DNA from: Bacteroidota bacterium
GTDB taxonomy: Bacteria; Bacteroidota; Bacteroidia; Flavobacteriales_C; GCA-002722245
Direction: 5' to 3'
NCBI GenBank assembly: GCA_026390935.1
Contig: JAPLEZ010000146.1
Span: 1 to 32,464 of the forward strand
Length of the DNA: 32,464 bases
The stretch's first letter is position 1; each line of letters opens with the position of its first letter. The position numbers and the translations under genes were made by a program. This document shows, piece by piece, positions 9,453-31,012 of the stretch. The notes below the pieces were generated by a model. The model made no database searches. It was not told where the DNA came from and saw nothing but the letters and a program-made list of their open reading frames with translations.

Positions 9453-9460
9453 TACTTTTG
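9453..9460 (+). promoter_or_regulatory. Candidate -7 box for the T9SS cargo gene
   Basis: TACTTTTG fits TAnnTTTG and lies 18 bp upstream of ATG 9479. A TTTG at 9434-9437 is a possible but close-spaced -33 element (15 bp). Confidence 0.45.
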
Positions 9461-9478
9461 TGTCAAATACGTCTAATT

Positions 9479-12400: not shown

Positions 12401-13942
12401 GGATATAGTGATACATATATTGATAGGCAGGACTTTCCAAGCTGGGATGTGGATGATGATGGAAATATTTATTACAATATCGATTGGAACAATATTTTCA
12501 CCAGCGGTTCGGCAGGGGTAAGCACAAAACTTGTTTTTGATGGTAAAGAAATATCGGCAATCAGTAAAAACATATTGGTGAAATTCAGTCCTTCAGGAAA
12601 AATTATTTGGTATAACGAAAATGAATTTTACCATTCTGCTTTCATCGCTAATTATAAAAATAAATTGTTTGTGGGTGGAACTTTCAATACGATTTACAAT
12701 TCCACCAATACACCTGTTGTAAAGACTTCGGATGGAAAATCTTTCGGTTTTCCTGCATCCGGTCGTGCTGATTGCTTTATCATGGAAGTAGATACTTCAG
12801 GAAAATATCAGTGGAGCAAAACGGTTTCTTCCAAAGATTATGACTGGATCTTTGATGCAGCGGCTTCACCTTGCGGACAATTGTCTTACCTCATTGAAAA
12901 AAATTCTGTGCATTCAATTTACGACTTGGACGATAATGGTAATTGTGGAAGTACCTGTGCATTTTTTAATAAAACCGCAAACGCAATTAATTCTTGTACC
13001 GGAAAGTCCCTTGACATGAAAATTTCTTCTTATGGATTGGATAGTGCATCAGTTTATTTGAGTTACTATGGCAGCACTAATTTTTATAAAAAAATAGCTT
13101 ATCATGGTTCATGGAACGTAAAGCTTCCCGATACCATTTCAGCTCCTTTTATTAAAGTTATTTTTTCGGCTTTGAGTAAATCAGATACCATCAAAGTGAA
13201 TTTATTTTCTTCACCTACATTGAATTTACCCGATACTGCCATAAGTTGCAGTCCTCTCTCGTATGCCTTTGTAAAAGGTCCAGTTGGTTACACTACCTAT
13301 GATTGGAGCGGCACTAATTTTTCGTCTACTTCAGATAATCTTATCACTACTACTCCAGGCTTTTATTCTTTAACTGTTACTAAAGGAAATTCCTGTTCTG
13401 CTACCGATAAAATGTATTTGATTATGTCGGATTATTCTTCAAAAAACATGGAGGTAAGTACCAGCGATTCTATTCTTTATAATTTCAAATATCTCGACAG
13501 TTTAAAGGTGAAATTTGCAGAATGGGATTTTGGCGATGGGACTCCACACTTGAAAGGAAGTTATAAAACTGCACACACATATAAAGATTCCGGAGAGTAT
13601 ATTTTGAAATTAAAAGTTGGAAATTTATGTGATACCGTGGAAATCGTGAATACTCTAAAGGTAAAGGCAAAGAATAAAGTTGGACTGCGAGAGGATTTAA
13701 CTACCTTGAATTCAATGCGTCTTTATCCAAATCCTTTTCAGGAAGAATTTGCTTTTATTATGAATGGCAATGAAAATATGACTTTAAAAATTACGAATGT
13801 AATCGGACAAGAGTTGCGGACATGTCAGACTACCGGAAATGTTAAAATCAATGTTGCGGATTTTGCAGATGGCATTTATTATCTGAGTGTATACTCAAAT
13901 AATAGCTTGATTAAAACGGAAAAGATTTTGAAAAGAAATTAA
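9479..13942 (+). CDS. Large T9SS-secreted protein with BNR/YCF48-like repeats, PKD domain and C-terminal sorting domain
   Basis: The 1487-residue protein begins with a signal peptide, MIRFLLSFSLLFLFIQSKAQ. The first ~330 residues carry Asp-box/YCF48-type repeats: TTDGGISF, TSNGGLTW, STNSGSSW, TSDGGSSW and SFDGGSNW, which indicate a beta-propeller. Ig-like segments follow. A second propeller-like region reads DxxGNxYV (DQFGNRYVVYD, DADNMGNMYVSGTF, DDDGNIYYNI). Near residue 1345-1400 a PKD domain shows EWDFGDGTPH and TYKDSGEY. The last ~80 residues form a type A sorting domain with LYPNPFQEEF, ITNVIGQEL and FADGIYYLSV, ending in KILKRN. T9SS therefore probably exports it to the surface. ATG 9479 is preferred to an upstream TTG. 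It converges with ispG one base after its stop. Confidence 0.92.
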   Translation: MIRFLLSFSLLFLFIQSKAQVTTVNIDIPDLLVATQYFFDENKGFVIGKSVYDPQTSTSLKTSIRRTTDGGISFVEGGNGDQFFDGSSFNNITFIDSQKGFMVGSYSFALWKAGAMIYSTSNGGLTWSITEYIGEGHSFLSIDFPTYSVGYICGYEGDIYKSTNSGSSWSKMPSPTTLALVDVKFKDELHGVVVGLGGTLYKTSDGGSSWQDISFGSRDNYSVVLKNDSIIVASEDGIFMSFDGGSNWHVAVKYKSYQVADLVINQNTGEIWAAGGSKVYRSSTGEFWEYTDVPGIATSISLVPQKNIAYVSDFHGKLYKIQDLSMKMVPVTRFEMTKSNYCAYDKIELSNFSPKGGSYKWYYDNVLVATDYSPTIYADTMGGDKSLRLTCNNDTYESSYNMPFYVMPIPKIKDITVNVANDTFCFGNSLTLDLSALETIVTYQVLIDGSPYHSSFTNVTSKTFTIPNLQGEPKVQVKALKSTSCDTVIKIFNTSTPIKVYALPALNYSFSYDSLVCLKDTVHFSGSNLSAAYDYQFKAMGGAYTFFSELNGKSFNYFFKEGQHSDAFYIEVKDKTSGCLSKSKTYAVKVDSAVSRFSFKQSFYLVGDSAEVVNTSNAVNFVWTTNDGLSSHVKNPKFSFSSTGIKSLKLFCTSGIGCKDSITKNITITDPQVFDPSKQCDSMSIAPSPYYKQVEMDYTVDQFGNRYVVYDLIVSGPSTYCSFFKYDKTGKIVAQGHLSPEYGTGKVAHYTGIDADNMGNMYVSGTFNTDQYTTGGVSKTVATEEKHGFLIKYDANGKFKWIIYSQIERGYLNMVGATATDVKVLNDNRIFVAMKGSFNSIVSANKYVTPHGNVLHGNADSHINILEVDSTGKIVMNHKAFEITPSVFYPNFGGSYNIDPQSITTNPFVVPKMKLNKKTNTITITGSFIKSVQFGSTVLTAATNTVGHYIATLNVDLSWQNAFVLYSMVGPGYNGYSDTYIDRQDFPSWDVDDDGNIYYNIDWNNIFTSGSAGVSTKLVFDGKEISAISKNILVKFSPSGKIIWYNENEFYHSAFIANYKNKLFVGGTFNTIYNSTNTPVVKTSDGKSFGFPASGRADCFIMEVDTSGKYQWSKTVSSKDYDWIFDAAASPCGQLSYLIEKNSVHSIYDLDDNGNCGSTCAFFNKTANAINSCTGKSLDMKISSYGLDSASVYLSYYGSTNFYKKIAYHGSWNVKLPDTISAPFIKVIFSALSKSDTIKVNLFSSPTLNLPDTAISCSPLSYAFVKGPVGYTTYDWSGTNFSSTSDNLITTTPGFYSLTVTKGNSCSATDKMYLIMSDYSSKNMEVSTSDSILYNFKYLDSLKVKFAEWDFGDGTPHLKGSYKTAHTYKDSGEYILKLKVGNLCDTVEIVNTLKVKAKNKVGLREDLTTLNSMRLYPNPFQEEFAFIMNGNENMTLKITNVIGQELRTCQTTGNVKINVADFADGIYYLSVYSNNSLIKTEKILKRN

Positions 13943-16287: not shown

Positions 16288-16303
16288 ATCATGGTTCAGA
16301 CAA
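16262..16303. repeat. Right 42-bp inverted repeat of the GxxExxY module
   Basis: This arm begins CATCCTTTAATC and ends GGTTCAGACAA, pairing with 15841-15882. It encodes the C-terminal HASFNPSIK and stop of the GxxExxY protein, and the first four codons (MVQT) of the cysteine desulfurase. Confidence 0.93.
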
Positions 16304-17385
16304 TCTATTTAGACTATAATTCCACCACACCCCTCGACTCCAAAGTACTGGAGGCCATGCTTCCATATTTCACCGAAGAGTTTGGCAATGCGGCAAGCAG
16401 CACGCACCGTTACGGCTGGGTGGCTAAAGATGCGGTGGAATGTGCCCGAAAACAAATTGCTGATTTGATTGGTGCTGAACCGGGCGAAATAATTTTTACA
16501 TCAGGAGCCACTGAATCCATTAACCTTTCCATTCAAGGCATTTACAATCTTTTTAAAAGAGAGAAAAATCATTTAATCACAGTTAGGACCGAGCACAAGG
16601 CGGTTTTAGATGTGCATGCTTTTTTGCAGAAGGAAGGTGCTGAAGTAACTTATTTGGGTGTGGATGCTGCCGGACAAATTGATTTGCTTGAATTGGAAAA
16701 TGCCATTACTGATAAAACCGCTTTGGTTTCGGTAATGCTTGCCAACAATGAAACCGGAGTGATTCAGGATATTCATAAAATTTCACAAATAGTTCATTCT
16801 AAAAGATCCATTTTATTTAGCGATGCTACTCAGGCAATAGGTAAAATGAAAGTGAACGTAAATGATTTGGGAATAGATGCAATGCCTTTGTCGGCTCATA
16901 AAATATATGGCCCCAAAGGCGTTGGAGCTCTTTATTTGAGAAGAAAAGCGCCGAGGGTTCGTTTGCAAAATCCTTTGCATACAGGAACAGCCAATGTGCC
17001 AGGAATAGTGGGATTGGGGAAAGCCTGTGAAATTTTAGAGATTGAAAAAGAAGGACAACGCTTGTCGACTTTAAAAACGGAATTGTTTCGGGGCTTGTCG
17101 GATTTGGGTTTCCTCAGCAATGTCCCTCTGGAAAATACTTTGAACAATACTTTGAATTTTCGTCATCCTGTTTTAAAAGCCAGTGATTTGCTGGTAAAAA
17201 CACGGGATCTGGCGTATTCATTGGGTTCGGCATGCAATTCTGCTGACCCTTCTCCCTCATATGTTTTATTGGCGATGGGTATGCACGAAAAAGAAATCAA
17301 AAACAGTTTTAGGATCAGTTTGGGTCGACATACCGCAAAGCAAGATCTTGCTTCGGTTCTGAAGATTTTTCATACCACGATATAA
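16291..17385 (+). CDS. Cysteine desulfurase, NifS/IscS type
   Basis: This is a PLP enzyme that removes sulfur from cysteine as an enzyme-bound persulfide for Fe-S clusters or thiolation. Of its 364 residues, IYLDYNSTTPLD marks the N-terminus, FTSGATESINLSI (69-81) the cofactor pocket, and LANNETGVIQD (150-160) the substrate region. SAHKIYGPKGVGALY holds PLP lysine K204, and SLGSACNSADPSPSYVLLAMG holds catalytic C315. It is a little shorter than IscS (~400). Nearby ispG is itself an Fe-S enzyme, but no IscU or regulator is adjacent. Its start codon lies inside the right inverted repeat. Residues MVQT are repeat-encoded and precede the usual IYLD start. Confidence 0.93.
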   Translation: MVQTIYLDYNSTTPLDSKVLEAMLPYFTEEFGNAASSTHRYGWVAKDAVECARKQIADLIGAEPGEIIFTSGATESINLSIQGIYNLFKREKNHLITVRTEHKAVLDVHAFLQKEGAEVTYLGVDAAGQIDLLELENAITDKTALVSVMLANNETGVIQDIHKISQIVHSKRSILFSDATQAIGKMKVNVNDLGIDAMPLSAHKIYGPKGVGALYLRRKAPRVRLQNPLHTGTANVPGIVGLGKACEILEIEKEGQRLSTLKTELFRGLSDLGFLSNVPLENTLNNTLNFRHPVLKASDLLVKTRDLAYSLGSACNSADPSPSYVLLAMGMHEKEIKNSFRISLGRHTAKQDLASVLKIFHTTI

Positions 17386-17415: not shown

Positions 17416-20400
17416 ATGATCATGAGGATTTTTTTAAGTGCGTTATTTTTAGGTTCATTTCTACTTCCAACCTACGCGCAAAATAAGGTGTGGACAGATT
17501 CACGAGATCACTTGATTGAAGGCGTGTCATTGTTTACTGCTAACGAGTATGAGAAAGCCATAGCCGAATTCCAGGAGATTTCATCCAATGATACCAATTA
17601 CATTTTGGCACAGTTGGAGCAAGCGCTTTGCTATACAGAGCTGAAGAACGATTCTATGGTGGTGAAAATATGCCGGTCAGCTCTTCCTGTGGATAACAAA
17701 TGGGATCACTTATTTCGTCAGTATTTGATAGAAAGTTTGGTGCATCTTAAAAATGATGAGGCATACGAGCAAATTGCGATGGCCAAAAGGAAATACCCTT
17801 TCAACGAAGATTTTATTTTAGAAGAAGTGGTGGCCAATAATGCTTGGGAAAAATACGATCAAAGTATAGCTGTGCTTCAAAAGTTGATTCAACAAAATCC
17901 ATTCAATAGAAATGCACATTATTATTTGGGCAAAATAAAAGCTGATCAAGGTGACTATGTAAGAGCAACGATTTCATTGGAGACTTTTTTAATGATGTCG
18001 TCTGTCAACAACGCGAAAACAGCAGCAGCGCTACAAATCCTGAGTAATATTTTTAGTAATAAGCAGGAGGTTACCATCAAAAACGCTAAAAAAGACAAGC
18101 TGTTTAAGGATGCAGAAGAATTGATGGAATCTAAGCTTGCATTGAAGGCCGCTTATAAAACAGATGCTCCTTTGGATGATCCTATTGTTCGTCAGACGGA
18201 TGTATTGATAAAAAATCTGGAATTTAAAAAAGGCAGCAACGATTTCTGGATGGATTTTTATGTGCCTTTTTTAATTAAAGTAAAAGAAAAGGGGATGCTT
18301 CGCGGTTTCACCTATCAGTTTTTGTCTTTTCTGGATTACAAAGTAGTGCAGGATGGAGTGAAGAAATTCAAACCCGAAGTAGATAAATTCCTCACTTTTG
18401 CTTCTGAATATTTTGACGAAATACTTAATAAGGCACCCGTTACCGTGCAGGGAAAAACAGTTGTTTTGGATAAAGGCTATGAGGATGATTGTTTGGTTTC
18501 AATGGGCAAAAGGGATGGAGAAAAATATGTGGGCACTTGGTACTTCTTTTATCCTGAAGGTGCTTTGCAACAAATTCTTCATTATACCGACGCTGGTGTG
18601 AAGACCGATACCGTTTTTGATTATTATATTGATGGAAGGGTGAAGGACTGGTTCATTTATAAAAATGGAGTGGTAGAAGGAAGAAACATGGAATATTATC
18701 CCACTGGCGTATTGAAATCCGATTTGCTTTTTGTTGCCGATTCACTAGAAGGTCCACAAAAAATTTATTTTGCTAACGGTGCTCCAAAGGAAATCATGGA
18801 TTTTAAAAAAGGACAGCGCCATGGACCAGCCACAGAGTATACAAATACCGGCGAAATTGACATGGAGCTGAATTACAAAGAAGGTAGTTATGATGGCTTG
18901 CAAAAAGTTTATTTTCCTGGAAAGATTTTAAAAACAGATGTGTATTACAAAGATGGTGAGCGCGACGGCTTATTTATCTCTTACCACAAAAACGGAAAAT
19001 TATTTTCCAAAGGAAATTATAAAGCCGGAACTCCTGTTGGCAAATGGGAAGAGTTTTTTAGTAATGGTAAACCGCAAAGAGTTTACACGCTAAATGAAAA
19101 AGGGGACTACATTGATTCTTTAATGACTTACCATCACAATGGTCAGCTGGCAACGGTTACCCATTACAATGCAAAAGGACTAAAGGAGGGATTGGACATC
19201 AATTATTCTCCTTCAGGAAAATTAATGAGCATCTTCATTTACAAGAAAGATGCGATCAAATCTTGGAAATATTTTTCAGCCAATGGAAAGGAGCTCGCGG
19301 CAGGAACTAAAACTTTGACGAACTATAATGAATACGGTAACATAGATTCCAAAGGGCCAATTAAAAAGGGATTTCGTGTGGGGCGCTGGGAATTTTATTA
19401 TCCTAACGGAGAAATTTCAGCAATCGGCATGTACAACGATTTAGGTGAGCTGGAAGGGACCTATGAAGAATACTATAAAGGAGGAGTGATAAAAAGCAAA
19501 ACCACCTATCAAAAGGATCAATTCACTGGGCCTTACATTGCGTACTTCCCCAACGGAAAGGTGGAAACGGAGGGATGGTATGTTAACGGGCAGCATGTTG
19601 GAGAATGGACTTGGTACTACATCAACGGCAAACCGAAACAAAGAAATTATTATATAGATGACGAAGTGAACGGCATCATTGAAAATTGGAATCCGGATAG
19701 CACTTTGGATTATACCAGAAAATACGATGAGCATCTTTTTCAGTCTATTACCTATTATGATGCCAACAATAAAGAGAGGATAAAATTAGAAACCAAGCAT
19801 GGCAACGGCACTTTCAACTACGAAAGTGAAAATGCATTGATGGATGTGCATCGTACTTACAAATATGGTGTAATTGACGGGAAGGTCACCACAACCACGA
19901 AGAAGGGAACAGTGATACACGATGAAAATTATGTTCATGGTAATTTGCACGGAAAACAAGTTTATCGCTATGCAAACGGACAAGTTTTACGCGAGGTTGA
20001 ATACATCCACGACGACGAGCATGGTACATGGAAATATTATTTTGAAGATGGAACAATTTCACTGCTTCGTCATTATTCCTATGGTCAGCTTTCCGATTCT
20101 TCGGTTTGGTATTATCCTTCAGGAACTCCACGAGTAAAAGAGTATTACAATGATATGGGCCAGGTGACAGGTATTTTGACTTGGTATTTCGACAATGGGA
20201 AAGTGAAGAAAAAATCTAATTATGCTTTTGGAGAAAGAGACGGTTGGACCTATGATTACGATCCGGAAGGACGATTAATTTATTCACGTTGGTTTGAAAA
20301 TGGAAATGTGGTTTTTGCAAAAGGTTTGGCTGCCAATGGAAAAGACACGCTGACTTTCAATACTTACGAAAGATCAATGGATGTAACCGTTTACTACGAC

Positions 20401-20754
20401 AATGGTAAAGTAGCGCTTTCTGCTCATTATGAAAATGGCATGTTGCAAGGACCATGGCACAAATATTTTTACAATGGCAATGTGATGGAAGAAGATGTGA
20501 TGTTTCAAGATGAGTCCAATGGAGAAAGTACTGATTACTATAGCAATGGTAAAATCATGGACAAGGAAAATTCTTACATGGGGCAATTACAAGGCTTGCA
20601 ATTGTATTATTATGACAACGGACAATTGCGTGAAGAAGAAAGTGATTGTATAGGAATAAATGTTGGAGAGCATAAAGTGTACAATAAAATGGGAGTTTTA
20701 ATTGTTCATGAAGAATTCCGACAAGGGATGGTGATTAAAAATTATATTAAATAA
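17416..20754 (+). CDS. Secreted TPR protein with about 25 YwqK/MORN-variant repeats
   Basis: The 1112-residue protein starts with a signal sequence (MIMRIFLSALFLGSFLLPTYAQ). TPR-like helices span about 25-230 (LFTANEYEKAIAEFQEI, YDQSIAVLQKLIQ, YYLGKIKADQGDYVRA). From about 370 to the end it is a long array of ~25 units of the form G.W..YY.NG.....Y, for example GRWEFYYPNGEISAIGMY and GEWTWYYINGKPKQRNYY. These are MORN-variant (YwqK) repeats. Public annotation sometimes labels this family 'antitoxin', but no toxin gene is present. The size and signal peptide suggest a surface or periplasmic scaffold. The stop overlaps the next ATG by one base (TAATG), implying translational coupling. ATG 17422 is an equally good start. 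Confidence 0.85.
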   Translation: MIMRIFLSALFLGSFLLPTYAQNKVWTDSRDHLIEGVSLFTANEYEKAIAEFQEISSNDTNYILAQLEQALCYTELKNDSMVVKICRSALPVDNKWDHLFRQYLIESLVHLKNDEAYEQIAMAKRKYPFNEDFILEEVVANNAWEKYDQSIAVLQKLIQQNPFNRNAHYYLGKIKADQGDYVRATISLETFLMMSSVNNAKTAAALQILSNIFSNKQEVTIKNAKKDKLFKDAEELMESKLALKAAYKTDAPLDDPIVRQTDVLIKNLEFKKGSNDFWMDFYVPFLIKVKEKGMLRGFTYQFLSFLDYKVVQDGVKKFKPEVDKFLTFASEYFDEILNKAPVTVQGKTVVLDKGYEDDCLVSMGKRDGEKYVGTWYFFYPEGALQQILHYTDAGVKTDTVFDYYIDGRVKDWFIYKNGVVEGRNMEYYPTGVLKSDLLFVADSLEGPQKIYFANGAPKEIMDFKKGQRHGPATEYTNTGEIDMELNYKEGSYDGLQKVYFPGKILKTDVYYKDGERDGLFISYHKNGKLFSKGNYKAGTPVGKWEEFFSNGKPQRVYTLNEKGDYIDSLMTYHHNGQLATVTHYNAKGLKEGLDINYSPSGKLMSIFIYKKDAIKSWKYFSANGKELAAGTKTLTNYNEYGNIDSKGPIKKGFRVGRWEFYYPNGEISAIGMYNDLGELEGTYEEYYKGGVIKSKTTYQKDQFTGPYIAYFPNGKVETEGWYVNGQHVGEWTWYYINGKPKQRNYYIDDEVNGIIENWNPDSTLDYTRKYDEHLFQSITYYDANNKERIKLETKHGNGTFNYESENALMDVHRTYKYGVIDGKVTTTTKKGTVIHDENYVHGNLHGKQVYRYANGQVLREVEYIHDDEHGTWKYYFEDGTISLLRHYSYGQLSDSSVWYYPSGTPRVKEYYNDMGQVTGILTWYFDNGKVKKKSNYAFGERDGWTYDYDPEGRLIYSRWFENGNVVFAKGLAANGKDTLTFNTYERSMDVTVYYDNGKVALSAHYENGMLQGPWHKYFYNGNVMEEDVMFQDESNGESTDYYSNGKIMDKENSYMGQLQGLQLYYYDNGQLREEESDCIGINVGEHKVYNKMGVLIVHEEFRQGMVIKNYIK

Positions 20755-22685
20755 TGAAATCAATACTTAGCGCAGCATTATTTTTGGTTTTATGTACTTC
20801 ACTGTTTGCACAAAAAGTGAATTACGATTCTTTGCAGCTGAAATACCACGACGAATCTGCGGTGTACAGCGTTGATAAGGAAAACATGGTGGTGCAGCTC
20901 AATAAAGGAAAATTGAATATTTACTCGGATCACGTTTCTGAAATTTGGTTTTTGAAAGACAACGCGAAGTCGTATGCGGATAAGGCTATGTATTATTCAT
21001 ATTTCACGGCATTAAGAGGTATTAGTGCTTACTCACTTGTTCCAAAGGGCAAAGGAAAATTCTCTAAAGTAAAAGTAACTGAGTTTAGTACCAACAATGT
21101 GCTTTCTTCCAGTATTTTCTTTGATAGTAACAAGAAAAAATCATTCACTTTTCCTGCAGCTGAAAAGGGTGGTGCCGGTCACTTGGAATATCGTGAAGTA
21201 TACAACGATCCAAAATTTATTGGTGTGTTTTATTTCAATAGCTACATACCTGTTATGCATTCCGAGTTTTCTATTTCCTTCCCATCCAGTGTTAAAGTGG
21301 AATACAATTTAAAAAATACAGAACGCTATAAAATCTCTTTTTCAAAAACAGAAAAAAAGGGAGTGATCACTTACAAATGGGTGGCTAATGATATTGAATC
21401 ATATACTATTCCCGACAATGCTCCAGCATTCAGTTATTATGCGCCACACGTGATCGTTCGTATTTCTGAAGTGAAACATGAAAATGGTGAGGTGGAAAAA
21501 ATTCTTCCGGACGTAGATGCACTTTACAACTGGTATTACAGTTTGGTGGAAAAGGTGAACACCGAAAGCAATCCCGAATTGGAGCAGTTGGTGGATTCTT
21601 TAACCAATGGTGTAAAAGGCAATGATGAAAAAGCTCGCGCAATTTTTAATTGGGTACAAAGCAATGTGAAGTACGTGGCTTTTGAAGACGGTATGGGTGG
21701 TTTTGTACCTCGTGAAGCGCACATGGTTTGTCAACGCCGTTACGGTGATTGTAAAGACATGGCAAGCATTATTACTACCATGCTGAAATCGGCTGGATTG
21801 GAAGGACATCTCACCTGGATTGGCAGTAGAGATATTCCTTATGTGTACCATGATGTGCCAATGCCAATAGTAGACAATCATATGATTTCTGCTTATAAAA
21901 AGGAAGATGGTACTTACATCTTTTTGGATGCTACCGGATCGTACACTCCTTTTGGGTATCCAACATCTTTCATTCAGGGAAAAGAGGCGCTTATTGAAAA
22001 CGGAAAAGGAAAATACAACATAGTAAAGGTTCCTGAAATCCCGAAAGAAAAAAATCTTCGAAGAGACTCTGTGCATTTGCGCATTGAAGACAAAGTGCTT
22101 GTAGGAAATGGCATGATTGATTCACGTGGCTGCGATAAATTGAATTTCGTTTACCGCATGATCAATAAATCAAAAGATAAATATCCCGACATACTCAAAG
22201 AATATCTGAGCAAAGGAAACAACAAAATCGAGTTTCAAAAAGCAAATACAAAGGGCTTGGATAATCGTGATACAACTCTGGAAATAAAGTACGAATTTAA
22301 ATTGCCCGACTATGCCAAATTTGTTGGTGACGAGGTTTACGTTAACATGCATTTGGAAAAGGAATTGAAGGGAAGAACCATTGATATCGCCAAGAGAAAG
22401 GGAATTCCAATGGAGTGCGATTACAAATATATCGACAAAGAAATTGTGCGATTAGAAATTCCAAAGGGAATGAAATTAGAATATGTTCCAGCCGCTGTGG
22501 AATATAAAAATTCTTTGTTTGGATTTTCTATTTCATACACGGTTTTGAAGGATGAAGTTGTGTTGAATAAAGAAGTGTACATCGATTATCTTTTACTTAC
22601 TGAAGAAAATTTTGAAGCGTGGAATACCATGGTTAAAGAGCTTAACAAGGCTTACAACGAAGTAATCATTTTAAAAAAGAAATAA
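20754..22685 (+). CDS. DUF3857 and transglutaminase-like domain protein, catalytic triad intact
   Basis: The 643-residue secreted protein has a signal peptide (MKSILSAALFLVLCTSLFAQ), a DUF3857 region at about 45-230, and a transglutaminase-like papain-fold domain at about 280-400. The triad is complete: C333 in RYGDCKDMAS, H376 in VDNHMIS and D392 in YIFLDAT. A beta-rich C-terminal domain follows. Such proteins may act as peptidases, amidases or cross-linkers in the envelope; the substrate is unknown. Its ATG overlaps the stop of the YwqK-repeat gene, and a paralogue with a changed Cys follows 9 bp later, so the three probably act together. Confidence 0.88.
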   Translation: MKSILSAALFLVLCTSLFAQKVNYDSLQLKYHDESAVYSVDKENMVVQLNKGKLNIYSDHVSEIWFLKDNAKSYADKAMYYSYFTALRGISAYSLVPKGKGKFSKVKVTEFSTNNVLSSSIFFDSNKKKSFTFPAAEKGGAGHLEYREVYNDPKFIGVFYFNSYIPVMHSEFSISFPSSVKVEYNLKNTERYKISFSKTEKKGVITYKWVANDIESYTIPDNAPAFSYYAPHVIVRISEVKHENGEVEKILPDVDALYNWYYSLVEKVNTESNPELEQLVDSLTNGVKGNDEKARAIFNWVQSNVKYVAFEDGMGGFVPREAHMVCQRRYGDCKDMASIITTMLKSAGLEGHLTWIGSRDIPYVYHDVPMPIVDNHMISAYKKEDGTYIFLDATGSYTPFGYPTSFIQGKEALIENGKGKYNIVKVPEIPKEKNLRRDSVHLRIEDKVLVGNGMIDSRGCDKLNFVYRMINKSKDKYPDILKEYLSKGNNKIEFQKANTKGLDNRDTTLEIKYEFKLPDYAKFVGDEVYVNMHLEKELKGRTIDIAKRKGIPMECDYKYIDKEIVRLEIPKGMKLEYVPAAVEYKNSLFGFSISYTVLKDEVVLNKEVYIDYLLLTEENFEAWNTMVKELNKAYNEVIILKKK

Positions 22686-22694
22686 TTATCTAAT

Positions 22695-24674
22695 ATGAAA
22701 TACGCATTTTATTTTTTGTCGCTTTTATTTTTTCAGACTTTATCAGCACAGGAAGATCCTACAGAAATTGAATTAAAAAATTATGATTGGGAAATCAATC
22801 CTGTGCGCTCGGTGATCACAGCCGATGAAGCAAAATTTGAAGTGGTGTACACCAAGGATTTATTGGTGGTGGAATATATTTTATTGGGCGACACTCTTTT
22901 TGAATACAACACGTTGCATAAAAAAATTATGCTCAACACTGATGCTGGAGTGGACAATTTCAACAAAGTATATATTTCAACTTATCAGGGTCAGGAAGTG
23001 ATGTTGTTGAAAGCGCGTTCAATTTCAAAAGATGGAAAAGTAACGGTGTTCGATAAAAGCAATATCAAGGAAGTAGAGAATTATGAAAATGCTGGGCCAT
23101 ACACGATCTTTGCGTTGGAAGGTGTTGAGGTAGGAAGTGAGGTGGAGTATGTTTACACCACAAGAGTAGTGCTTACCTCTTTGAATTATGATTCACGTGT
23201 TTTTCAAAATTCTTTCCCTGTAAAAAATTCGCATTTCGAATTGATTTATCCAAGTCATTTGCTCTTCACTTCAAAATCTTACAACGGTTTACCAGAGCCG
23301 GTTTTGGATACAACTAAAGACGGAAAAAACAAAATCACTATCGATGTTGCCTACATTCCGGCTGAGTCAAAAGACAAGTATTCACCTGGTAAAGCTGCTT
23401 TGCAGCGCTTGGAATACAAGTACAATAAAAACAAACTGAACAGCAAAGGAGAGGTGCACACTTGGGACGATGCAGCAAAAAACTATTACAAAAGTTTGTA
23501 CGAAGGTCGAGATGAAAAAATTTATAAAAAGGAAGTGAAGGCAGCTAAAAAGCTTCTAAAATCATTGAAATTAAAGGATCTTCCTGAGGAGGAGCAGATC
23601 AGAAAAATTGAAGATTACATTAAAACGAATATCGGTATCACCGAAGAGGATGCTTCGCATTATGTGTTTGATATGATTAAAAAGAAGTCGGCCACTTATT
23701 TCGGTATGGCTCGACTTTTTGCTATTGTTTTGAATGAAAGTGGTATTGATCATCAGCTGGTGATGACTTGCAACAGAATGAATACACCTTTTGATGGTGA
23801 ATTTCAAACATGGCATTATCTTCAAAAATTCTTGATGTATTTTCCAAAATACAACAAATATATTTCTCCGATTGATGTGCTTTATCGTTACGGTTTGGTG
23901 CCAAGTGATTATGCTTACACTGATGGTATGTTTGTCAAATTAATTCGATTGGGTGATATTAAAAGTCCGGTGGCAAGAGTCGGATTTATTGACGGTCCGG
24001 ATGCAGAATTGAACTACGACAATCTCGACATGACTGCTAATTTTGGCGACGATTTTTCAACTTGTAAACTCGATATCAAGAGAGAAATTTTGGGCTATGA
24101 ATCTGTGTCTTTTCAAGCTATAGTGAAATATCTGAAGTTTGATCAAAAGGAAGAATTGGCGGGTAATTTATTGAAATACGCTGGTGAGGATGCAGAGGTG
24201 TTGGAGCACTTTTTTGGTGCTGAAAAGGAAGGTGACATTTTTAAAAATCCTTTTATTCTTAACGGAAAAGTTCAAGTGAATTCTTTGTTGGAAAAAGCGG
24301 GAAGCAAATATATTTTTAATATCGGAAATACTATTGGTCGACAAGAAGAAATGTACCAAGAGAAGGCTCGCGAAACTGATATTGAGTTGGATTACCCACA
24401 CTCTTATTTGCGAACAATTAAATTCACTGTTCCTGAAGGTTATGTTGTAAAAAACATTGATGATTTGAAGATGGATGTTTTTGCTGAAGAAGATGGCAAA
24501 CGCATCATGACTTTTACCGTCACTTATGTGAAAGAAGGAAATACTTATACTGTAACAGTGGAGGAGTATTACAAAAGAATAAAATTGCCAAAAACGCAAA
24601 TCGACATTTTCAGAAAGGTGATCAATGCCGCTGCCGATTTCAATAAAAAGCAATTGATCTTAGAGAAACAATGA
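22695..24674 (+). CDS. DUF3857 protein with degenerate transglutaminase domain (Cys replaced by Tyr)
   Basis: The 659-residue paralogue of the preceding gene also has a signal peptide (MKYAFYFLSLLFFQTLSAQ) and a DUF3857 region (about 45-230). The transglutaminase-like section runs from about 290 to 400. By alignment, GDCKDMASI of the neighbour corresponds to ATYFGMARL here, so nucleophile C333 becomes Y335. The His (H374, TWHYL) and Asp (D394, SPIDV) positions are kept. It should therefore be catalytically dead as a transglutaminase/protease and may serve as a partner or binding protein. The gap to the upstream gene is 9 bp. A large hairpin follows the stop. Confidence 0.82.
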   Translation: MKYAFYFLSLLFFQTLSAQEDPTEIELKNYDWEINPVRSVITADEAKFEVVYTKDLLVVEYILLGDTLFEYNTLHKKIMLNTDAGVDNFNKVYISTYQGQEVMLLKARSISKDGKVTVFDKSNIKEVENYENAGPYTIFALEGVEVGSEVEYVYTTRVVLTSLNYDSRVFQNSFPVKNSHFELIYPSHLLFTSKSYNGLPEPVLDTTKDGKNKITIDVAYIPAESKDKYSPGKAALQRLEYKYNKNKLNSKGEVHTWDDAAKNYYKSLYEGRDEKIYKKEVKAAKKLLKSLKLKDLPEEEQIRKIEDYIKTNIGITEEDASHYVFDMIKKKSATYFGMARLFAIVLNESGIDHQLVMTCNRMNTPFDGEFQTWHYLQKFLMYFPKYNKYISPIDVLYRYGLVPSDYAYTDGMFVKLIRLGDIKSPVARVGFIDGPDAELNYDNLDMTANFGDDFSTCKLDIKREILGYESVSFQAIVKYLKFDQKEELAGNLLKYAGEDAEVLEHFFGAEKEGDIFKNPFILNGKVQVNSLLEKAGSKYIFNIGNTIGRQEEMYQEKARETDIELDYPHSYLRTIKFTVPEGYVVKNIDDLKMDVFAEEDGKRIMTFTVTYVKEGNTYTVTVEEYYKRIKLPKTQIDIFRKVINAAADFNKKQLILEKQ

Positions 24675-24707: not shown

Positions 24708-24832
24708 CTTCCCTCTCGGAGGAGAGGGGTGCGTTGGAAAGTGCGCAGGCAGGGAGATGGATTAATTTAATTGGGTCCATCTCCCTCCTCCCCGCGAAAA
24801 GGCTTTCACACCCCTCTCCTCCGAGAGGGAAG
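24708..24832. repeat. Nested perfect inverted repeat (24-bp outer, 10-bp inner stem)
   Basis: The outer arm at 24708-24731 (starts CTTCCCTCTCGGAGG) is the exact reverse complement of 24809-24832. Between them GGGAGATGGA (24752-24761) pairs with TCCATCTCCC (24776-24785) around an AT-rich loop. The arms are GC-richer than the surroundings. It lies between the DUF3857 gene and the cupin gene and could end or attenuate the upstream transcript, though no U-tract follows. It looks like a dispersed palindromic element. Confidence 0.85.
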
Positions 24833-24853
24833 CCCATGCCCGAAAAAAATCAT

Positions 24854-25345
24854 ATGATAAATTCATCAACTTACTGGATTCAAAAACTCCATCTTCAGGC
24901 ACACCCTGAAGGCGGCCATTTCAACGAAAATTATCGATCTGCAAAAATGCATGGCGATAGAAATATTGCCACCAGTATTTATTTTTTGCTGAAGGGTGGT
25001 GAAGTATCGCACTTGCACCGACTCACTTCCGATGAGTTGTGGTATTATCATTTCGGACAAGCTTTAAAAGTAACAGTGATTGACTTGGAGGGAAAATTAC
25101 ACGAATATTTCGTGGGCCCTGATTTAGATGCCGGACAGCAACTGCAACTCATTATTCCCGCTGGAAGCATCTTTGGGTCGGAAGTTGTTGGCGATAAAAA
25201 CAATTTTTCGCTAGTGGGCTGTATGGTAAGTCCGGGATTTGATTTCAGGGATTTCGAGCTATTTACCACGTCACAGCTTCTTAAAATGTACCCTCAGTAT
25301 CCTCAACAAATTAATCGCTTAACAAAGGAAAAGTATTTATATTAG
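24854..25345 (+). CDS. Cupin family protein (DUF985)
   Basis: This 163-residue single-domain cupin matches DUF985. STYWIQKLHLQAHPEGGHFNE is the diagnostic N-terminal segment, and SHLHRLTSDELWYYHFGQAL gives the first cupin motif with likely metal-binding His and Glu. IPAGSIFGSEV and SLVGCMVSPGFDFRDFEL form the second half. The biochemical role of DUF985 is not established to my knowledge. The open frame extends upstream through the 24-bp hairpin arm, and an ATG at 24836 is possible. ATG 24854, just before the conserved region, is preferred. The next gene starts 4 bp after its stop. Confidence 0.88.
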   Translation: MINSSTYWIQKLHLQAHPEGGHFNENYRSAKMHGDRNIATSIYFLLKGGEVSHLHRLTSDELWYYHFGQALKVTVIDLEGKLHEYFVGPDLDAGQQLQLIIPAGSIFGSEVVGDKNNFSLVGCMVSPGFDFRDFELFTTSQLLKMYPQYPQQINRLTKEKYLY

Positions 25346-25349
25346 TCAG

Positions 25350-28130
25350 ATGAAGATGCGTCTGCTTAGTTTACTACTATCTCTATATAGCTGTGTGGCT
25401 CTTGCGTTCACGCCAGCGATGTATACTTATACCACCAGCGAGTATGAAGTGCATCAGGAAAATTACAGTGCTGTTTTTGATGGCAATGGTCTTTTGTATG
25501 TGGCAAATGCCTATGCTGTATTGGAGTATGATGGTTACGAATGGAAAAAAATTCCTTTGCCCGATGGCAAGAGTCCGGTTTCCTTGTGTTATTTCGATAA
25601 CAAAGTGTTTATAGGTGGGAATGATGAATTCGGCTATATATCGCGCAATGCCACGGGCATTTCTACTTACCATTCTTTAGTGCATTTAGTGCCCGATGGC
25701 GACAAGAAACAAATTGGTTGGCTGGACCACTGTGTGGAAGCCAACGGCAAAATTTATTTTGGAAACTCTACTTCGATTTTTATTTATGATGGCACAGCAG
25801 TTACCGTGATGAAGCCTAGCAAAAGCGGAAAGTTTTTGGACATAGAAAATCAGGGCGGACAAATTCATCTTTTTGAAAAAGGTAGAGGATTGGGTGTTTT
25901 TGACAACACCAATATCGAATGGATGGCCGGAAATATTGCTCATCTCGATATTATAGGAATTGAAAAAGTGTCTTCTAAATTGTACTACTTATATGCTTCC
26001 GATGGGGTGTATAAATTTGATGGCTTGCATGCTGAACGCATGGAAAAAACAGCTTTTTTAAGCAAACAAGTTTTAACGCATGTGATTGCCGACGGCAGTA
26101 AAAAAGTACTTTGTACTGAATTGGGTGGAGTATATATTTTAGATGATCAGTTTGATTTGAAATTTCATTTTGATCAAACAAACAGTCAGCTCACCACCAA
26201 CTATGTTTATGCTGCTGCTGAAAATAAGCAAGGTGATTTGTGCTTTGCAACCGCCAACGGAATTACCTTATTGAATTTAAGTTCTTCAGTGACCAATGTT
26301 GATATAAGCTCGGCGTTGTACGGCGCGGGATATTCTTCTTTATTGGTTGGCGACACCATGTATTTGGGAACTTCACAAGGTTTGTTTTTTGCTCCGCATT
26401 GGAAGGCAAAGGGCGAGAAAAAGTTTGAAAAAATTCCTGAAGTGAAAGCCTATGTTTACGATATTCATTTGCAAAACGGAGCTTTGTTTTGCGGCAATCG
26501 CGCTGAGGTTTATCAAATTAAGGGAACGCAGGTGAAGGTGCTTTCACCAGAAAGCGGCAGAGGTGCTTGGGGCTTTCATTCAGTTCCAAATATGAAGGAT
26601 GTTTTTTTAGTCGGTACATATACTGGAATCGACGTTTATAAATTTGAAAATGGGGCATGGAAATTTTCAAATAAATTGGAAGGATATAATTGTCCGGGAA
26701 GAAATTTTGAATTTGATAGCGAAGGCAATATTTGGGTGGCTAGTGGCTTGGCCGGACTTTTTAAAATATCTGTAGATAAAGGCTATTCCAAGGTTTTGAA
26801 AAGTGAAGAATTTTGCGAAAAATTTAAGCACAAAAAAGATTATTTTATTGAACTCATCAAAAGCGGAAATACCATTTTAATTTCTTCTTACGATGGAATT
26901 TATAAAGTGGAGAATGGCACCTTGAAAAAGGATGAACAGCTAAACGCTTTGGGTTTGCCCTTTGAACGCATTCGTAAAATCAATGACAATTTAATTTACA
27001 CGGTTCAAAAGAGAATGCCTGTGGTATTGCAAAAAACCGACGAAGGTTTTGTGATCGACAGCGCTCATATTCTCAACAACATAAGAGTGGAATTGATTGG
27101 TAATTCCGAGTTAATTGATCAGTTTTCGCATCAAGAATATATTGTGGGAACGCCCGATGGATTTATCATTGCCAACAACGCCAGCTCAAAACAATACTAC
27201 GGAAAAATCAGTTTCAGAAAAATTCAAAACATTTTTTCTGATAGTTTGATCAGCACTGAAAATCCATTGTCATTCGACAACAACAATATCCGATTTACTT
27301 TTTCTTATTCTCCGCTGGAAAGATTTTATTCTTTGGAATGGTACGCTATGCTTGAAGAAGATGGAAAGGGTGTTTGGCAAAAAATTGACAAAACACATTT
27401 CAAGGAATTTTCCAATTTAAAAGAAGGGGATTATACTTTCCGACTGAAAGTGGTTTGTCGATATACCACATTGGATGAAACAGCGGTCTCTTTTACCATT
27501 CTTCCGCCATGGTACAGAACTACATTGGCGAAAGTTATTTATTTTCTTCTGATAGTTGCTTTGGCCTATTTTATTTTCCGTTACAATCGTTTGCGCATGC
27601 AAAAACTGGAGATTAAAATGACCGAAGAAAAACAAAAAGAATTGATGGTTCAGGAAAAGGAATTTAAGGCTGAATTGCTCAAAAAAGAATTGCAAGAAAA
27701 GGAAACTGAAATGTCGTACATGGCACTCAACTACAGTCAGAAAAAAGATTTGTTGGAGCATGTAAGTGATAAGATGAACGATTTGCTCACCAAGCTGGAT
27801 GATCCTCGCGCATTGCGTGCCGAGATCAAAGGACTGGAATATTCACTCAACACTTCCGAAGGCGACGAAGAGAAGAAGTGGAATGAATTCCAAATCCTTT
27901 TCAATAAAGAACACAACGATTATTTAGATAAAATTAAGGCCATGGATCCTAAGATTAAAGAATCTATGTTGCTCATGTGTGTATACATTCGCATGGGAAA
28001 AAGCAATAAGGACATTTGTAATCTCATCAACATTTCTATCACTGCTTTGGATAAGCGTAAATCCCGTTTGAGAGAGAAATTCAACGTGGCGGAAGATGTG
28101 ACGTTGAATGAGTTTTTGAGGTTGTTATAG
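25350..28130 (+). CDS. One-component membrane regulator: propeller sensor, triple-tyrosine domain, TM, coiled coil, LuxR-type HTH (copy 1)
   Basis: The 926-residue protein has a signal peptide and then a long beta-propeller of two-component-regulator type (VLEYDGYEWKKIPLP, VFIGGNDEFGYI, WVASGLAGLFKI) to about 630. A Y_Y_Y-type Ig-like domain lies at about 640-720 (FTFSYSPLERFYSLEWYAML, LKEGDYTFRLKV). One membrane segment (about 727-746) is followed by a charged coiled coil (about 750-800). The C-terminal HTH at about 868-926 reads RMGKSNKDICNLINISITALDKRKSRLREKF. There is no kinase domain, so signal and DNA binding sit on one chain. Such proteins often regulate nearby outer-membrane genes. 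It is 4 bp from the cupin gene and has a tandem paralogue. Confidence 0.88.
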   Translation: MKMRLLSLLLSLYSCVALAFTPAMYTYTTSEYEVHQENYSAVFDGNGLLYVANAYAVLEYDGYEWKKIPLPDGKSPVSLCYFDNKVFIGGNDEFGYISRNATGISTYHSLVHLVPDGDKKQIGWLDHCVEANGKIYFGNSTSIFIYDGTAVTVMKPSKSGKFLDIENQGGQIHLFEKGRGLGVFDNTNIEWMAGNIAHLDIIGIEKVSSKLYYLYASDGVYKFDGLHAERMEKTAFLSKQVLTHVIADGSKKVLCTELGGVYILDDQFDLKFHFDQTNSQLTTNYVYAAAENKQGDLCFATANGITLLNLSSSVTNVDISSALYGAGYSSLLVGDTMYLGTSQGLFFAPHWKAKGEKKFEKIPEVKAYVYDIHLQNGALFCGNRAEVYQIKGTQVKVLSPESGRGAWGFHSVPNMKDVFLVGTYTGIDVYKFENGAWKFSNKLEGYNCPGRNFEFDSEGNIWVASGLAGLFKISVDKGYSKVLKSEEFCEKFKHKKDYFIELIKSGNTILISSYDGIYKVENGTLKKDEQLNALGLPFERIRKINDNLIYTVQKRMPVVLQKTDEGFVIDSAHILNNIRVELIGNSELIDQFSHQEYIVGTPDGFIIANNASSKQYYGKISFRKIQNIFSDSLISTENPLSFDNNNIRFTFSYSPLERFYSLEWYAMLEEDGKGVWQKIDKTHFKEFSNLKEGDYTFRLKVVCRYTTLDETAVSFTILPPWYRTTLAKVIYFLLIVALAYFIFRYNRLRMQKLEIKMTEEKQKELMVQEKEFKAELLKKELQEKETEMSYMALNYSQKKDLLEHVSDKMNDLLTKLDDPRALRAEIKGLEYSLNTSEGDEEKKWNEFQILFNKEHNDYLDKIKAMDPKIKESMLLMCVYIRMGKSNKDICNLINISITALDKRKSRLREKFNVAEDVTLNEFLRLL

Positions 28131-28219: not shown

Positions 28220-31012
28220 ATGAAGTTAAAGTTATTAAGTTTAATTGCTTTATTAAATACCTGTTTAGCTTTTGCTTTCACGCCCGCTATTTATACCTAT
28301 ACCACTAAGGATTATGATGGTCGGCAAGACAATACCAGTGCTGTTTTTGATGGTGAGGGATTGTTGTATGTAGCCAATGCATACGGTGTGTTGGAGTACG
28401 ATGGGTACAAATGGATTAAAATTCAGTTGCCGGCAGGGAAGAGTCCGGTTTCACTATGTGTTCATGATAAAAAAATATTTGTAGGCGGAAATGATGAAAT
28501 AGGTTATGTGTCGCGCGATGCTGCCGGTGTTTCTTCCTATCATTCCTTATTGCCCTTGCTTGCCGATAGTTTGAAAAAACAAATTGGGTGGATGAACTAC
28601 TGCGTAGAATCTGCAGGCAAAATTTATTTCGTTACCGATCAGCGTATTTTTATTTACGACGGTAAAGCGGTGACAATGATGAAGCCGCGTGCCGGCGGTA
28701 AGTTTTCTTATTTGGGAAAACACAACGGACAGCTTTTTCTGTTTGAAAAAGGAAGAGGTTTGGCTGTTTATGAAAATGAAAATTTTAATTGGTTCCAAAG
28801 CGACATAAAGAATTTGGAGATACGCGGTGTTGAAAAAATGACATCCAAATTGTATTATTTGTACGCCACAGATGGTATATACAAGTTTGATGGCGTACAT
28901 GCCGAACGCATTGAAAAGACAGCGTTTTTGGCCAAGGAAGCTGTAAATAGAGTAGTTGCCGGAAAAGATCAAAAGGTGATTTGTACTGAGCTCGGCGGCG
29001 TGTATATTTTAGATGATCAGTTTGATGTTAAATTTCATTTTAACCAAAGTAACAGCCATCTCACCACTAACTATGTTTACGATGCCGCAGAGAATAAACA
29101 AGGCGATTTGTGTTTGGCTACCGACAATGGAATTTCTATTGTGAATTTGAGTTCGGCGGTTTCTAACATTGATATTTCTTCCAATTTGTACGGCGCAGGT
29201 TTGTCTTCTTTATTGCTTGGAGATACGATGTATTTAGGGACTTCACAGGGCTTGTTTTTTGCTCCGAACTGGAAGGCAAAGGGTGAGAAGAAGTTTGTGA
29301 AAATTCCGGGGGTGAAAGCCTTTGTGTACGATATTCACGTGCAAAATGGCGCCTTGTTTTGTGGCAATCGTTCTGATGTTTACAAAATTAATGGAGCTTC
29401 CGCCACCGTAATTTCTCCTGAGAGTTACAGAGGTGCCTGGGGAATACATTCGGTTCCCGGACGAAAGGATATGTTTTTGGTAGGAACTTATTCTGGAATT
29501 GATGTTTATCAGGTGATAGATTACGAGTGGGTTTTTTCACACAAGATGGAAGGCTATAATTCGCCGGCAATGAATTTGGAGTTGGATGCTGAAGGCAACA
29601 TTTGGGTGGCCAGCGGCTTGTCGGGATTTTTTAAACTACATGTCGACGATGATTTTTCTAAAGTGCTAGCTACTGAAGAGTTTTGCGCAAAGTTGAAAGA
29701 AAACAAAGACTATTTCATAGAACTCATCAAAGTGGAAAACGCAATTTATGTTTCATCACATAAAGGATTGTACAAGGTAGAGAAGGGAGATCTGGTAAAA
29801 GATGAGTACATGAATTCTTTAGGTTTGCCCTTTGAGCGCATTAGAAAAATCAACGATCAGCTCATTTATACCCTGCAAAACAAAACACCTATTCTGTTAA
29901 AAAAGGGAAATAGTGGTTTTGTTATTGACACTGCTCACATTTTAAACAATATCAATGCTGAGCTGATTGGTAATTCGGAGTTGATAGATAAAATTTCGCA
30001 GAATGATTTTCTGGCTGGAACTTCAGAAGGGTTTATAATAGCAAACAATGCTTCTCCTAAAAAATATTATGGCAATATTGCGGTAAGAAGAATTGAAAAT
30101 ATCTTTTCTGGAAAAGCCATTGAAATGCTTGCCGACAAAGGCATTGTGATCCCTTTCAGTGAAAATAACCTTCGCTTCACTTTTGCATATTCGCCCTTAG
30201 AAAGATTTTATGATGTTGAGTGGTATGTGATGTTGGAAGAAGATGGAAAGGGCCAATGGACCAAAGTTGAAAATGCACACGTTAAGGAGTTTTCCAACTT
30301 GCTGGAAGGGGATTATATTTTTCGCTTAAAAGTGGTTTGTCGCTACACTGCCTTGGATGAAACATCAGTGGCTTTTACTGTTTTGCCTCCTTGGTATAGA
30401 ACTACACTCGCTAAAATCATTTATTTCTTGTTGTTGCTCGGCGGTGCTTATCTTGCTTACCTGTATTCACAGCGTAAACTGGAGAAGGTAACCGATAAAA
30501 TGACTGAAGAAAAAGAACGCGAATTGCAAGAGCAAGGAGATGAGTTCAAAGCCGAGTTACTGAAAAAAGAATTGCAGGAAAAGGAAAATGAAATTTCCTT
30601 TATGGCTCTCAACTACAGTCAGAAACGCGAGTTGATGGAAAGCGTGAGCGATAAGCTAAACGATTTGTTGGGCAAGCTGGATGATCCTAGAGCGCTGCGA
30701 GTGGAAATAAAAGGGGTGATCAACTCACTCAATAATTCAGAAGGCGACGAAGAACTGAAATGGCAGGAATTCCAAATTCATTTCAATAAGGAGCACAATC
30801 ATTTTCTGGAAAAAATAAAGGAGATGGATCCTAAAATCAAGGAATCGGTTTTGCTCATGTGTACTTATATTCGAATGGGTAAAAGCAATAAAGACATTTG
30901 TAATTTGCTCAATATTTCTATCAATGCCTTGGATAAACGTAAATCGAGATTGAGGGAGAAGTTTAACATCCCCGAGGAGATTACCGTGAACGAATATTTG
31001 AGGCAATTGTAA
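28220..31012 (+). CDS. One-component membrane regulator, tandem paralogue (copy 2)
   Basis: The 930-residue protein has the same architecture as the preceding gene and aligns end to end. It has a signal peptide, propeller (VLEYDGYKWIKI, VGGNDEIGYVSRD), Y_Y_Y-type domain, TM at about 730-750, coiled coil (ELLKKELQEKENE) and HTH (RMGKSNKDICNLLNISINALDKRKSRLREKF). The DNA-recognition part is almost unchanged, whereas the coiled coil and parts of the propeller differ. A short insertion lies just before the Y_Y_Y-type domain (KAIEMLADKGIVIPF versus the shorter segment in copy 1). This suggests duplication with changed sensing and shared or overlapping DNA targets. Confidence 0.88.
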   Translation: MKLKLLSLIALLNTCLAFAFTPAIYTYTTKDYDGRQDNTSAVFDGEGLLYVANAYGVLEYDGYKWIKIQLPAGKSPVSLCVHDKKIFVGGNDEIGYVSRDAAGVSSYHSLLPLLADSLKKQIGWMNYCVESAGKIYFVTDQRIFIYDGKAVTMMKPRAGGKFSYLGKHNGQLFLFEKGRGLAVYENENFNWFQSDIKNLEIRGVEKMTSKLYYLYATDGIYKFDGVHAERIEKTAFLAKEAVNRVVAGKDQKVICTELGGVYILDDQFDVKFHFNQSNSHLTTNYVYDAAENKQGDLCLATDNGISIVNLSSAVSNIDISSNLYGAGLSSLLLGDTMYLGTSQGLFFAPNWKAKGEKKFVKIPGVKAFVYDIHVQNGALFCGNRSDVYKINGASATVISPESYRGAWGIHSVPGRKDMFLVGTYSGIDVYQVIDYEWVFSHKMEGYNSPAMNLELDAEGNIWVASGLSGFFKLHVDDDFSKVLATEEFCAKLKENKDYFIELIKVENAIYVSSHKGLYKVEKGDLVKDEYMNSLGLPFERIRKINDQLIYTLQNKTPILLKKGNSGFVIDTAHILNNINAELIGNSELIDKISQNDFLAGTSEGFIIANNASPKKYYGNIAVRRIENIFSGKAIEMLADKGIVIPFSENNLRFTFAYSPLERFYDVEWYVMLEEDGKGQWTKVENAHVKEFSNLLEGDYIFRLKVVCRYTALDETSVAFTVLPPWYRTTLAKIIYFLLLLGGAYLAYLYSQRKLEKVTDKMTEEKERELQEQGDEFKAELLKKELQEKENEISFMALNYSQKRELMESVSDKLNDLLGKLDDPRALRVEIKGVINSLNNSEGDEELKWQEFQIHFNKEHNHFLEKIKEMDPKIKESVLLMCTYIRMGKSNKDICNLLNISINALDKRKSRLREKFNIPEEITVNEYLRQL

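What the first reader, a model, noticed from the sequence alone, without database searches (positions are those of the whole stretch)
17416..24674. Coupled envelope operon: YwqK/MORN-repeat scaffold with two DUF3857 proteins
The 1-bp TAATG overlap and a 9-bp gap indicate tight co-expression of a ~110-kDa-plus repeat protein with an active and an inactive transglutaminase-like protein. YwqK repeats are loosely labelled antitoxin, but this context points to a secreted assembly, possibly one where the repeat array is a substrate or scaffold for cross-linking. It is a plausible undescribed system.
Basis: inference. Interest (0 to 1): 0.6.

Follow-up and report, generated by a model that had tools for sequence, protein, structure and literature searches.

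The report
Conserved enzyme, pseudoenzyme and repeat-scaffold operon
Three neighbouring genes encode exported proteins (a long repeat protein about 1,100 residues long, an intact cysteine enzyme and a dead copy of that enzyme); they stay together in this order in about two dozen families of Bacteroidota and look like an undescribed machine of the cell envelope whose job is still unknown.

Summary
17416-20754, 20754-22685 and 22695-24674 (+) encode a Sec-exported TPR plus MORN_2/YwqK-repeat protein (1112 aa), a DUF3857/transglutaminase-fold protein with an intact Cys-His-Asp triad (TgA) and a homologue that has lost all three residues (TgI). The three-gene order recurs in 24 of 68 families sampled in the class, and where both MORN and TgA occur they are adjacent in 39 of 39 genomes (co-occurrence Fisher p = 7e-30), while flanking genes change from genus to genus. 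TgA keeps the triad in 37/37 orthologues and TgI in 0/37; active and inactive copies fall in separate clades. The repeat array is nearly fixed in length (714 +/- 8 residues, less than one repeat), and each repeat resembles its positional counterpart best. Other family members fuse a TPR solenoid to an active DUF3857-transglutaminase domain, suggesting physical coupling. 'The array is the cross-linking substrate' is not supported: array-less pairs and pair-less arrays exist, and no Gln or Lys in the array is strongly conserved. Best reading: a periplasmic cysteine hydrolase with a dedicated pseudoenzyme partner, organised by a fixed-length TPR/beta-ladder scaffold. Substrate unknown. No description was found in the literature searched.

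The parts
17416..20754 (+). TPR-MORN protein (1112 aa, 128.9 kDa precursor): signal peptide, TPR alpha-solenoid (about residues 29-340), then about 30 MORN_2/YwqK repeats forming a continuous beta-hairpin ladder (about 341-1111)
   Evidence: Pfam MORN_2 E 1e-52; AlphaFold2 model pLDDT 88, pTM 0.75; array 714 +/- 8 aa across 37 orthologues; signal-peptide-like start in 37/37
20754..22685 (+). TgA: DUF3857 beta-sandwich, transglutaminase-fold domain with intact Cys333-His376-Asp392, DUF3858-like C terminus; predicted active enzyme
   Evidence: Pfam; triad 37/37; profile match to PDB 3kd4 E 2e-10
22695..24674 (+). TgI: same fold, catalytic Cys, His and Asp all lost; predicted pseudoenzyme partner with its own invariant residues (R108, K310, R398, G548, Q550, Y554, R573, E624, Y626, N644)
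   Evidence: AlphaFold2 pLDDT 89.5, best PDB fold match 3kd4, TM 0.67 on target length; hhalign to TgA over 622 columns, probability 99.9
16291..17385 (+). NifS-like cysteine desulfurase, 30 bp upstream; probably in the same transcript here but linked only within the genus, so not part of the conserved module
24842..25345 (+). Cupin_5 (DUF985) protein downstream; linked only within the genus, so not part of the conserved module; start inferred from orthologue lengths

Best explanation
The three genes encode one exported, most likely periplasmic, protein module. TgA is a cysteine enzyme of the transglutaminase-like superfamily, more likely a hydrolase (protease or amidase) than a cross-linker. 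TgI is an ancient inactive paralogue that acts as its dedicated partner, binding substrate and/or gating the active site. The third protein is an adaptor: its TPR solenoid holds the enzyme pair, and its fixed-length beta-ladder of about 30 individually conserved repeats gives an extended docking surface for a client or for an envelope structure. Shown here: domain content, triad retained or lost, conserved gene order and co-occurrence, ancient active/inactive split, near-fixed array length with positional orthology of repeats, and TPR-to-enzyme fusions elsewhere. Inferred: periplasmic location, complex formation, hydrolytic chemistry and the adaptor role. Unknown: the substrate.
For: Order MORN-TgA-TgI on one strand with tiny gaps in 36 completely recovered loci plus the window; 39/39 adjacency and Fisher p = 7e-30 for co-occurrence in 247 genomes; flanking genes not conserved beyond genus-level groups. 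Triad: 149 active proteins CHD or CHE, 133 inactive ones without the catalytic Cys, in separate fully supported clades (149 versus 122 and 11). Array length SD 8 aa for a repeat of about 24 aa; identity 28% in register versus 18% one repeat out. ~1,250-aa exported proteins fuse a TPR solenoid to an active DUF3857-transglutaminase domain, triad intact in 14/14. Signal-peptide-like N termini and no lipobox in the three families; no type IX secretion tail. Fold support: 3kd4 for TgI; MORN1, OspA and Rhs/teneurin-type beta-ladders, local only, for the array. Literature leads: superfamily members carry out proteolysis as well as transamidation (PMC4866520); MORN/YwqK and TPR proteins co-purify with the envelope proteins FtsX and EnvC in Fusobacterium (PMC5915739).
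Against: No direct evidence of interaction or catalysis. MORN is dispensable in some lineages (L037, a clade of 17) and occurs without the pair in five genomes. TgI is not detected next to TgA in a few loci where it could have been (L072, L078, L174). One relative keeps the TPR part with only a few repeats (L209, 438 aa). Tandem paralogues can stay adjacent through shared regulation alone. Signal peptides were judged by pattern, not by a trained predictor. The co-occurrence p value ignores relatedness of the genomes.
Confidence: 0.5

Rival explanations
1. One reading: TgA is a true transglutaminase that cross-links the MORN array (or proteins docked on it) into an envelope polymer.
For: Transglutaminase fold with an intact Cys-His-Asp triad; repeat proteins are plausible cross-linking substrates; adjacency.
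Against: The pair persists without the array (clean loss in L037; clade of 17) and the array without the pair (5 genomes). Best Lys column in the array 25/37 and no conserved Gln in it; the well-conserved Lys248, Gln260 and Gln22 lie outside the array. The array is nearly constant in length.
Confidence: 0.12
2. The genes are merely co-regulated: three envelope proteins needed under the same condition, without forming a complex.
For: Modular losses: pair without MORN, MORN without pair, TgA alone in a few loci.
Against: 39/39 adjacency over 24 families despite changing surroundings, constant gene order, TPR-enzyme fusions elsewhere, long co-retention of active and inactive paralogues.
Confidence: 0.2
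3. YwqK-type toxin-antitoxin or immunity system, as the database name for the repeats suggests.
For: Plasmid records name similar repeat proteins 'toxin-antitoxin system YwqK family antitoxin'.
Against: All three proteins carry export signals, no toxin-like neighbour is conserved, and full-length plasmid or phage copies are nearly absent.
Confidence: 0.03
4. TgI is not a partner of TgA but a scaffold or ligand-binding protein in its own right; pairing is a relic of tandem duplication.
For: TgI conserves its own set of residues unlike TgA's; the solved relative 3kd4 also appears to lack the catalytic Cys (YGTPLE against YGDCKD).
Against: Retention side by side in most lineages, including divergent pairs and triplets (L104-L129).
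Confidence: 0.15

Closest known systems
PDB 3kd4, 'putative protease' BDI_1141 of Parabacteroides distasonis (DUF3857 structure)
   Same: Same DUF3857 beta-sandwich plus transglutaminase-like core as TgA and TgI (profile E 2e-10; fold match)
   Different: Only 13% identical to TgI; a single structure without a described function; its sequence aligns YGTPLE to the YGDCKD motif, so it looks catalytically dead like TgI; no MORN partner described
Transglutaminase-like cysteine protease superfamily (LapG, vasohibins, Transglut_core PF01841)
   Same: Cys-His-Asp/Glu triad and core fold in TgA; periplasmic members such as LapG are proteases (PMC4866520)
   Different: DUF3857 and C-terminal beta domains, the pseudoenzyme partner and the repeat scaffold are not part of those systems as I know them
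MORN repeat proteins (MORN1, PDB 6t4r, 6t69, 6t6q)
   Same: Short glycine-rich repeats forming an antiparallel beta-hairpin ladder (PMC7725318)
   Different: Eukaryotic, about 15 repeats; here exported, about 30 repeats, TPR domain in front, nearly fixed length
LIC20035 family adhesin (NF033566, MORN-repeat protein)
   Same: Bacterial MORN_2-type repeats
   Different: 113 bits against a cut-off of 250; no TPR-enzyme operon
Rhs/teneurin YD-repeat shells
   Same: Local resemblance of a long beta-ribbon (E 1e-17 to 1e-13)
   Different: TM-score about 0.1, i.e. no shared overall shape; TPR domain instead of an Rhs core, no toxin domain

Membership tests
DUF3857 (PF12969) | DUF3857 domain above the curated cut-off | tested here: met
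   TgA 38.4 and TgI 48.8 bits against a cut-off of 24.6
Transglutaminase-like cysteine enzyme | Cys-His-Asp/Glu triad in TgA | tested here: met
   C333, H376, D392 in 37/37; 149/149 CHD or CHE in the wider set
Transglutaminase-like cysteine enzyme | Cys-His-Asp/Glu triad in TgI | tested here: not met
   No catalytic Cys in any of 133 inactive relatives: homologue, not an enzyme of this type
Protein cross-linking transglutaminase | Amine transfer to Gln; conserved acceptor/donor sites in the proposed substrate | tested here: inconclusive
   Activity not testable with these tools; no strongly conserved Gln or Lys in the array
MORN_2 / YwqK repeat protein | Tandem MORN_2 repeats over the cut-off | tested here: met
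   170 bits against a cut-off of 29.6; about 30 hairpins in the model
YwqK toxin-antitoxin system | Cognate toxin gene next to the antitoxin | tested here: not met
   No recurrent neighbour other than TgA/TgI across the loci; flanking families are genus-level
LIC20035 adhesin | Score over the NCBIfam cut-off | tested here: not met
   113.4 bits against 250
Type IX secreted cargo | C-terminal secretion tail | tested here: not met
   No such family hit in the three proteins; SprA is in 240/247 genomes, so its presence says nothing
Periplasmic Sec-exported protein | Cleavable signal peptide, no lipobox, no transmembrane helix | tested here: met
   Pattern-based: 37/37, 35/37 and 37/37 signal-like, 0 lipoboxes; the location itself was not tested

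The most novel reading that the evidence does not exclude
A phylum-wide, undescribed envelope-processing machine of Bacteroidota in which an active cysteine enzyme works with an obligate pseudoenzyme twin, positioned by a molecular ruler: a TPR head and a beta-ladder of a set number of repeats, each repeat kept in its own place, so that length and position on the ladder matter for what is processed.
Probability: 0.28. Interest if true: 0.75.

Novelty: new variant of a known kind. Interest (0 to 1): 0.55.

Why it matters
DUF3857 proteins are widespread in Bacteroidota but functionally undescribed (one passing mention in the literature searched). Showing that they come as an active/inactive pair, that the reference structure seems to be an inactive one, and that a large branch travels with a nearly fixed-length TPR-MORN scaffold turns an unnamed domain into a testable envelope system. 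It also gives a concrete function to look for behind the misleading 'YwqK antitoxin' label.

Tried and rejected
Correlation with type IX secretion: SprA is in 240 of 247 genomes, so it carries no information. Plasmid or phage carriage: one diverged TgA on a 1.6-Mb Persicobacter replicon, other weak matches, and one 4.5-kb unannotated faecal 'phage' record; nothing pointing to a mobile system. Single-sequence PDB searches found nothing; profiles were needed (against 68-70). Rhs/teneurin matches of the array model were rejected as membership because TM-scores are about 0.1. Consensus promoters and terminators are not clearly above shuffled background. Literature: no paper on this operon. A mirror-tree test with a control for species phylogeny was not possible with the sequences in hand.

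Full report
What is there. The window lies in a 3.76-Mb Bacteroidota assembly (G000, contig 42). A congener in the same search corresponds to a contig titled 'Flavobacteriales bacterium isolate nzgw151' (L130). Three genes on + follow one another: a 1112-aa repeat protein (17416-20754), TgA (643 aa, 20754-22685) and TgI (659 aa, 22695-24674), with a 1-bp TAATG overlap and a 9-bp gap. Pfam gives MORN_2 repeats with a weak TPR signal, DUF3857 plus Transglut_core, and DUF3857 plus a sub-threshold Transglut_core. All three start with a signal-peptide-like segment and lack a lipobox; no transmembrane helix is apparent and no type IX secretion tail was found.

Structures. An AlphaFold2 model of the repeat protein from 33 orthologues (pLDDT 88, pTM 0.75) shows a helical TPR solenoid (about residues 29-340) followed by a ladder of beta-hairpins to the C terminus, about 30 repeats. 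PDB matches are local: Rhs/teneurin ribbons, engineered OspA and eukaryotic MORN1, all with low overall TM-scores. The TgI model (pLDDT 89.5) matches 3kd4, the DUF3857 structure, best by far. TgA and TgI are homologous over their full length (hhalign 622 columns, probability 99.9, 14% identity).

Active and inactive. TgA has Cys333, His376 and Asp392 in 37 of 37 orthologues; TgI has none of the three in the window and lacks the Cys in every orthologue. Over 282 DUF3857-type proteins collected, 149 are CHD or CHE and 133 lack the catalytic Cys. On a tree the active ones form one clade and the inactive ones two (122 and 11), all fully supported after midpoint rooting. Distant pairs and triplets in other lineages repeat the pattern of one active next to one or two inactive copies. 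The profile alignment to 3kd4 puts YGTPLE where active members have YGDCKD, so the solved 'putative protease' seems to be inactive too (alignment-based, not checked against its coordinates).

Conservation of the neighbourhood. A class-level search with TgA over 247 genomes, fetched neighbourhoods and ORF-level gene order gave 36 complete MORN-TgA-TgI loci besides the window, all on one strand; 32 of 36 have both gaps at 30 bp or less. Full-length MORN orthologues occur in 44 genomes, TgA orthologues in 50, both in 39, in 24 of 68 families; odds ratio 136, Fisher p = 7e-30 (relatedness of genomes not corrected for). In the 39 genomes with both, MORN lies directly upstream of TgA in every one (in G184 this was read at a contig edge). 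A scan of named genomes extends this to Hymenobacter, Niastella, Mucilaginibacter, Flavobacterium, Aquimarina, Chitinophaga, Carboxylicivirga and others. Flanking genes differ between lineages: NifS, cupin and propeller-type regulators in this genus, other genes in the sister genus and elsewhere; no flanking family is found in more than 11 loci, and the recurrent ones are mostly of one genus or closely related group.

The array. In 37 triads the array between fixed anchor glycines is 714 +/- 8 residues (range 703-731), the TPR part 320 +/- 3; 86 full-length proteins are 1076-1169 aa. Repeats compared in register are 28% identical, one repeat out of register 18%, two out 14%; the order holds when Gly, Tyr, Asn and Trp are left out (20, 14, 12%). 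So the number of repeats is nearly fixed and each repeat has its own identity. Other MORN_2 ORFs in the same genome are 169-581 aa.

Exceptions that limit the claim. The pair occurs without MORN in a clade of 17 and in scattered loci with ample upstream sequence; in the congener L037 NifS and TgA are 72 bp apart with nothing between. MORN occurs alone in five genomes (G045, G084, G117, G148, G203). TgI was not found next to TgA in L072, L078 and L174. In L209 the TPR part is followed by only a few repeats. So the parts can work apart, and the array cannot be the only substrate.

Evidence for physical coupling. A separate family of about 1,250 aa in other Bacteroidia fuses a TPR solenoid to a DUF3857-transglutaminase domain with the triad intact in 14 of 14. 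TPR domains are promiscuous, so this is suggestive only.

Mechanism. Best reading: an exported, probably periplasmic, cysteine hydrolase with a dedicated pseudoenzyme partner, held by a TPR-MORN adaptor whose nearly fixed-length ladder docks a client or structure. Shown: sequence, predicted fold, conservation and architecture. Inferred: complex, location, chemistry, adaptor role. Cross-linking of the array is disfavoured: no Gln or Lys in the array is strongly conserved (best Lys 25/37) and array and enzyme occur apart. Superfamily members elsewhere include proteases and transglutaminases (PMC4866520). A weak lead to cell-wall biology is that MORN/YwqK and TPR proteins co-purify with FtsX and EnvC in Fusobacterium nucleatum (PMC5915739).

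Novelty. No paper in the library searched describes the operon; DUF3857 is mentioned in one paper only. The library lacks most subscription journals and preprints, so absence there is not proof. The component families are known, the combination is not described as far as I could find, so I file it as a new variant of a known kind.

Noticed in passing
window 24708-24842: Imperfect palindromic element of about 130 bp between TgI and the cupin gene; roughly 40 copies in the genome (78 matches counting both orientations). It resembles a MITE or REP-type element and makes the mechanical cupin ORF about 50 aa too long.
   Followed up: partly
window 25350-28130 and 28220-31012: Two tandem similar proteins of about 930 aa with weak propeller/Y_Y_Y and response-regulator-type C-terminal matches, probably membrane-bound regulators; conserved next to the operon only within the genus.
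   Followed up: no
L233-L246: Family of ~1,250-aa exported TPR-DUF3857-transglutaminase fusions, all with an intact triad.
   Followed up: partly
PDB 3kd4 (BDI_1141), no window coordinates: The reference structure of DUF3857, named a putative protease, aligns YGTPLE to the catalytic YGDCKD motif and so appears to be catalytically inactive.
   Followed up: partly
L121-L129: Distant DUF3857 pairs and triplets with one active and one or two inactive copies, gene order varying: the active/inactive pairing may be a general rule of the family.
   Followed up: partly
G088:C46, G166:C33, G200:C111 (L231, L232): A separate single-gene family of MORN proteins of about 570-580 aa resembling the middle of the array.
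   Followed up: no
own genome: About a dozen other MORN_2 ORFs (169-581 aa) and two SprA-type genes in the same genome.
   Followed up: no
window 9458-13942: Large 1494-aa ORF starting at TTG upstream of the ispG gene; parts of it give weak local matches to ORFs in several related loci; not identified.
   Followed up: no
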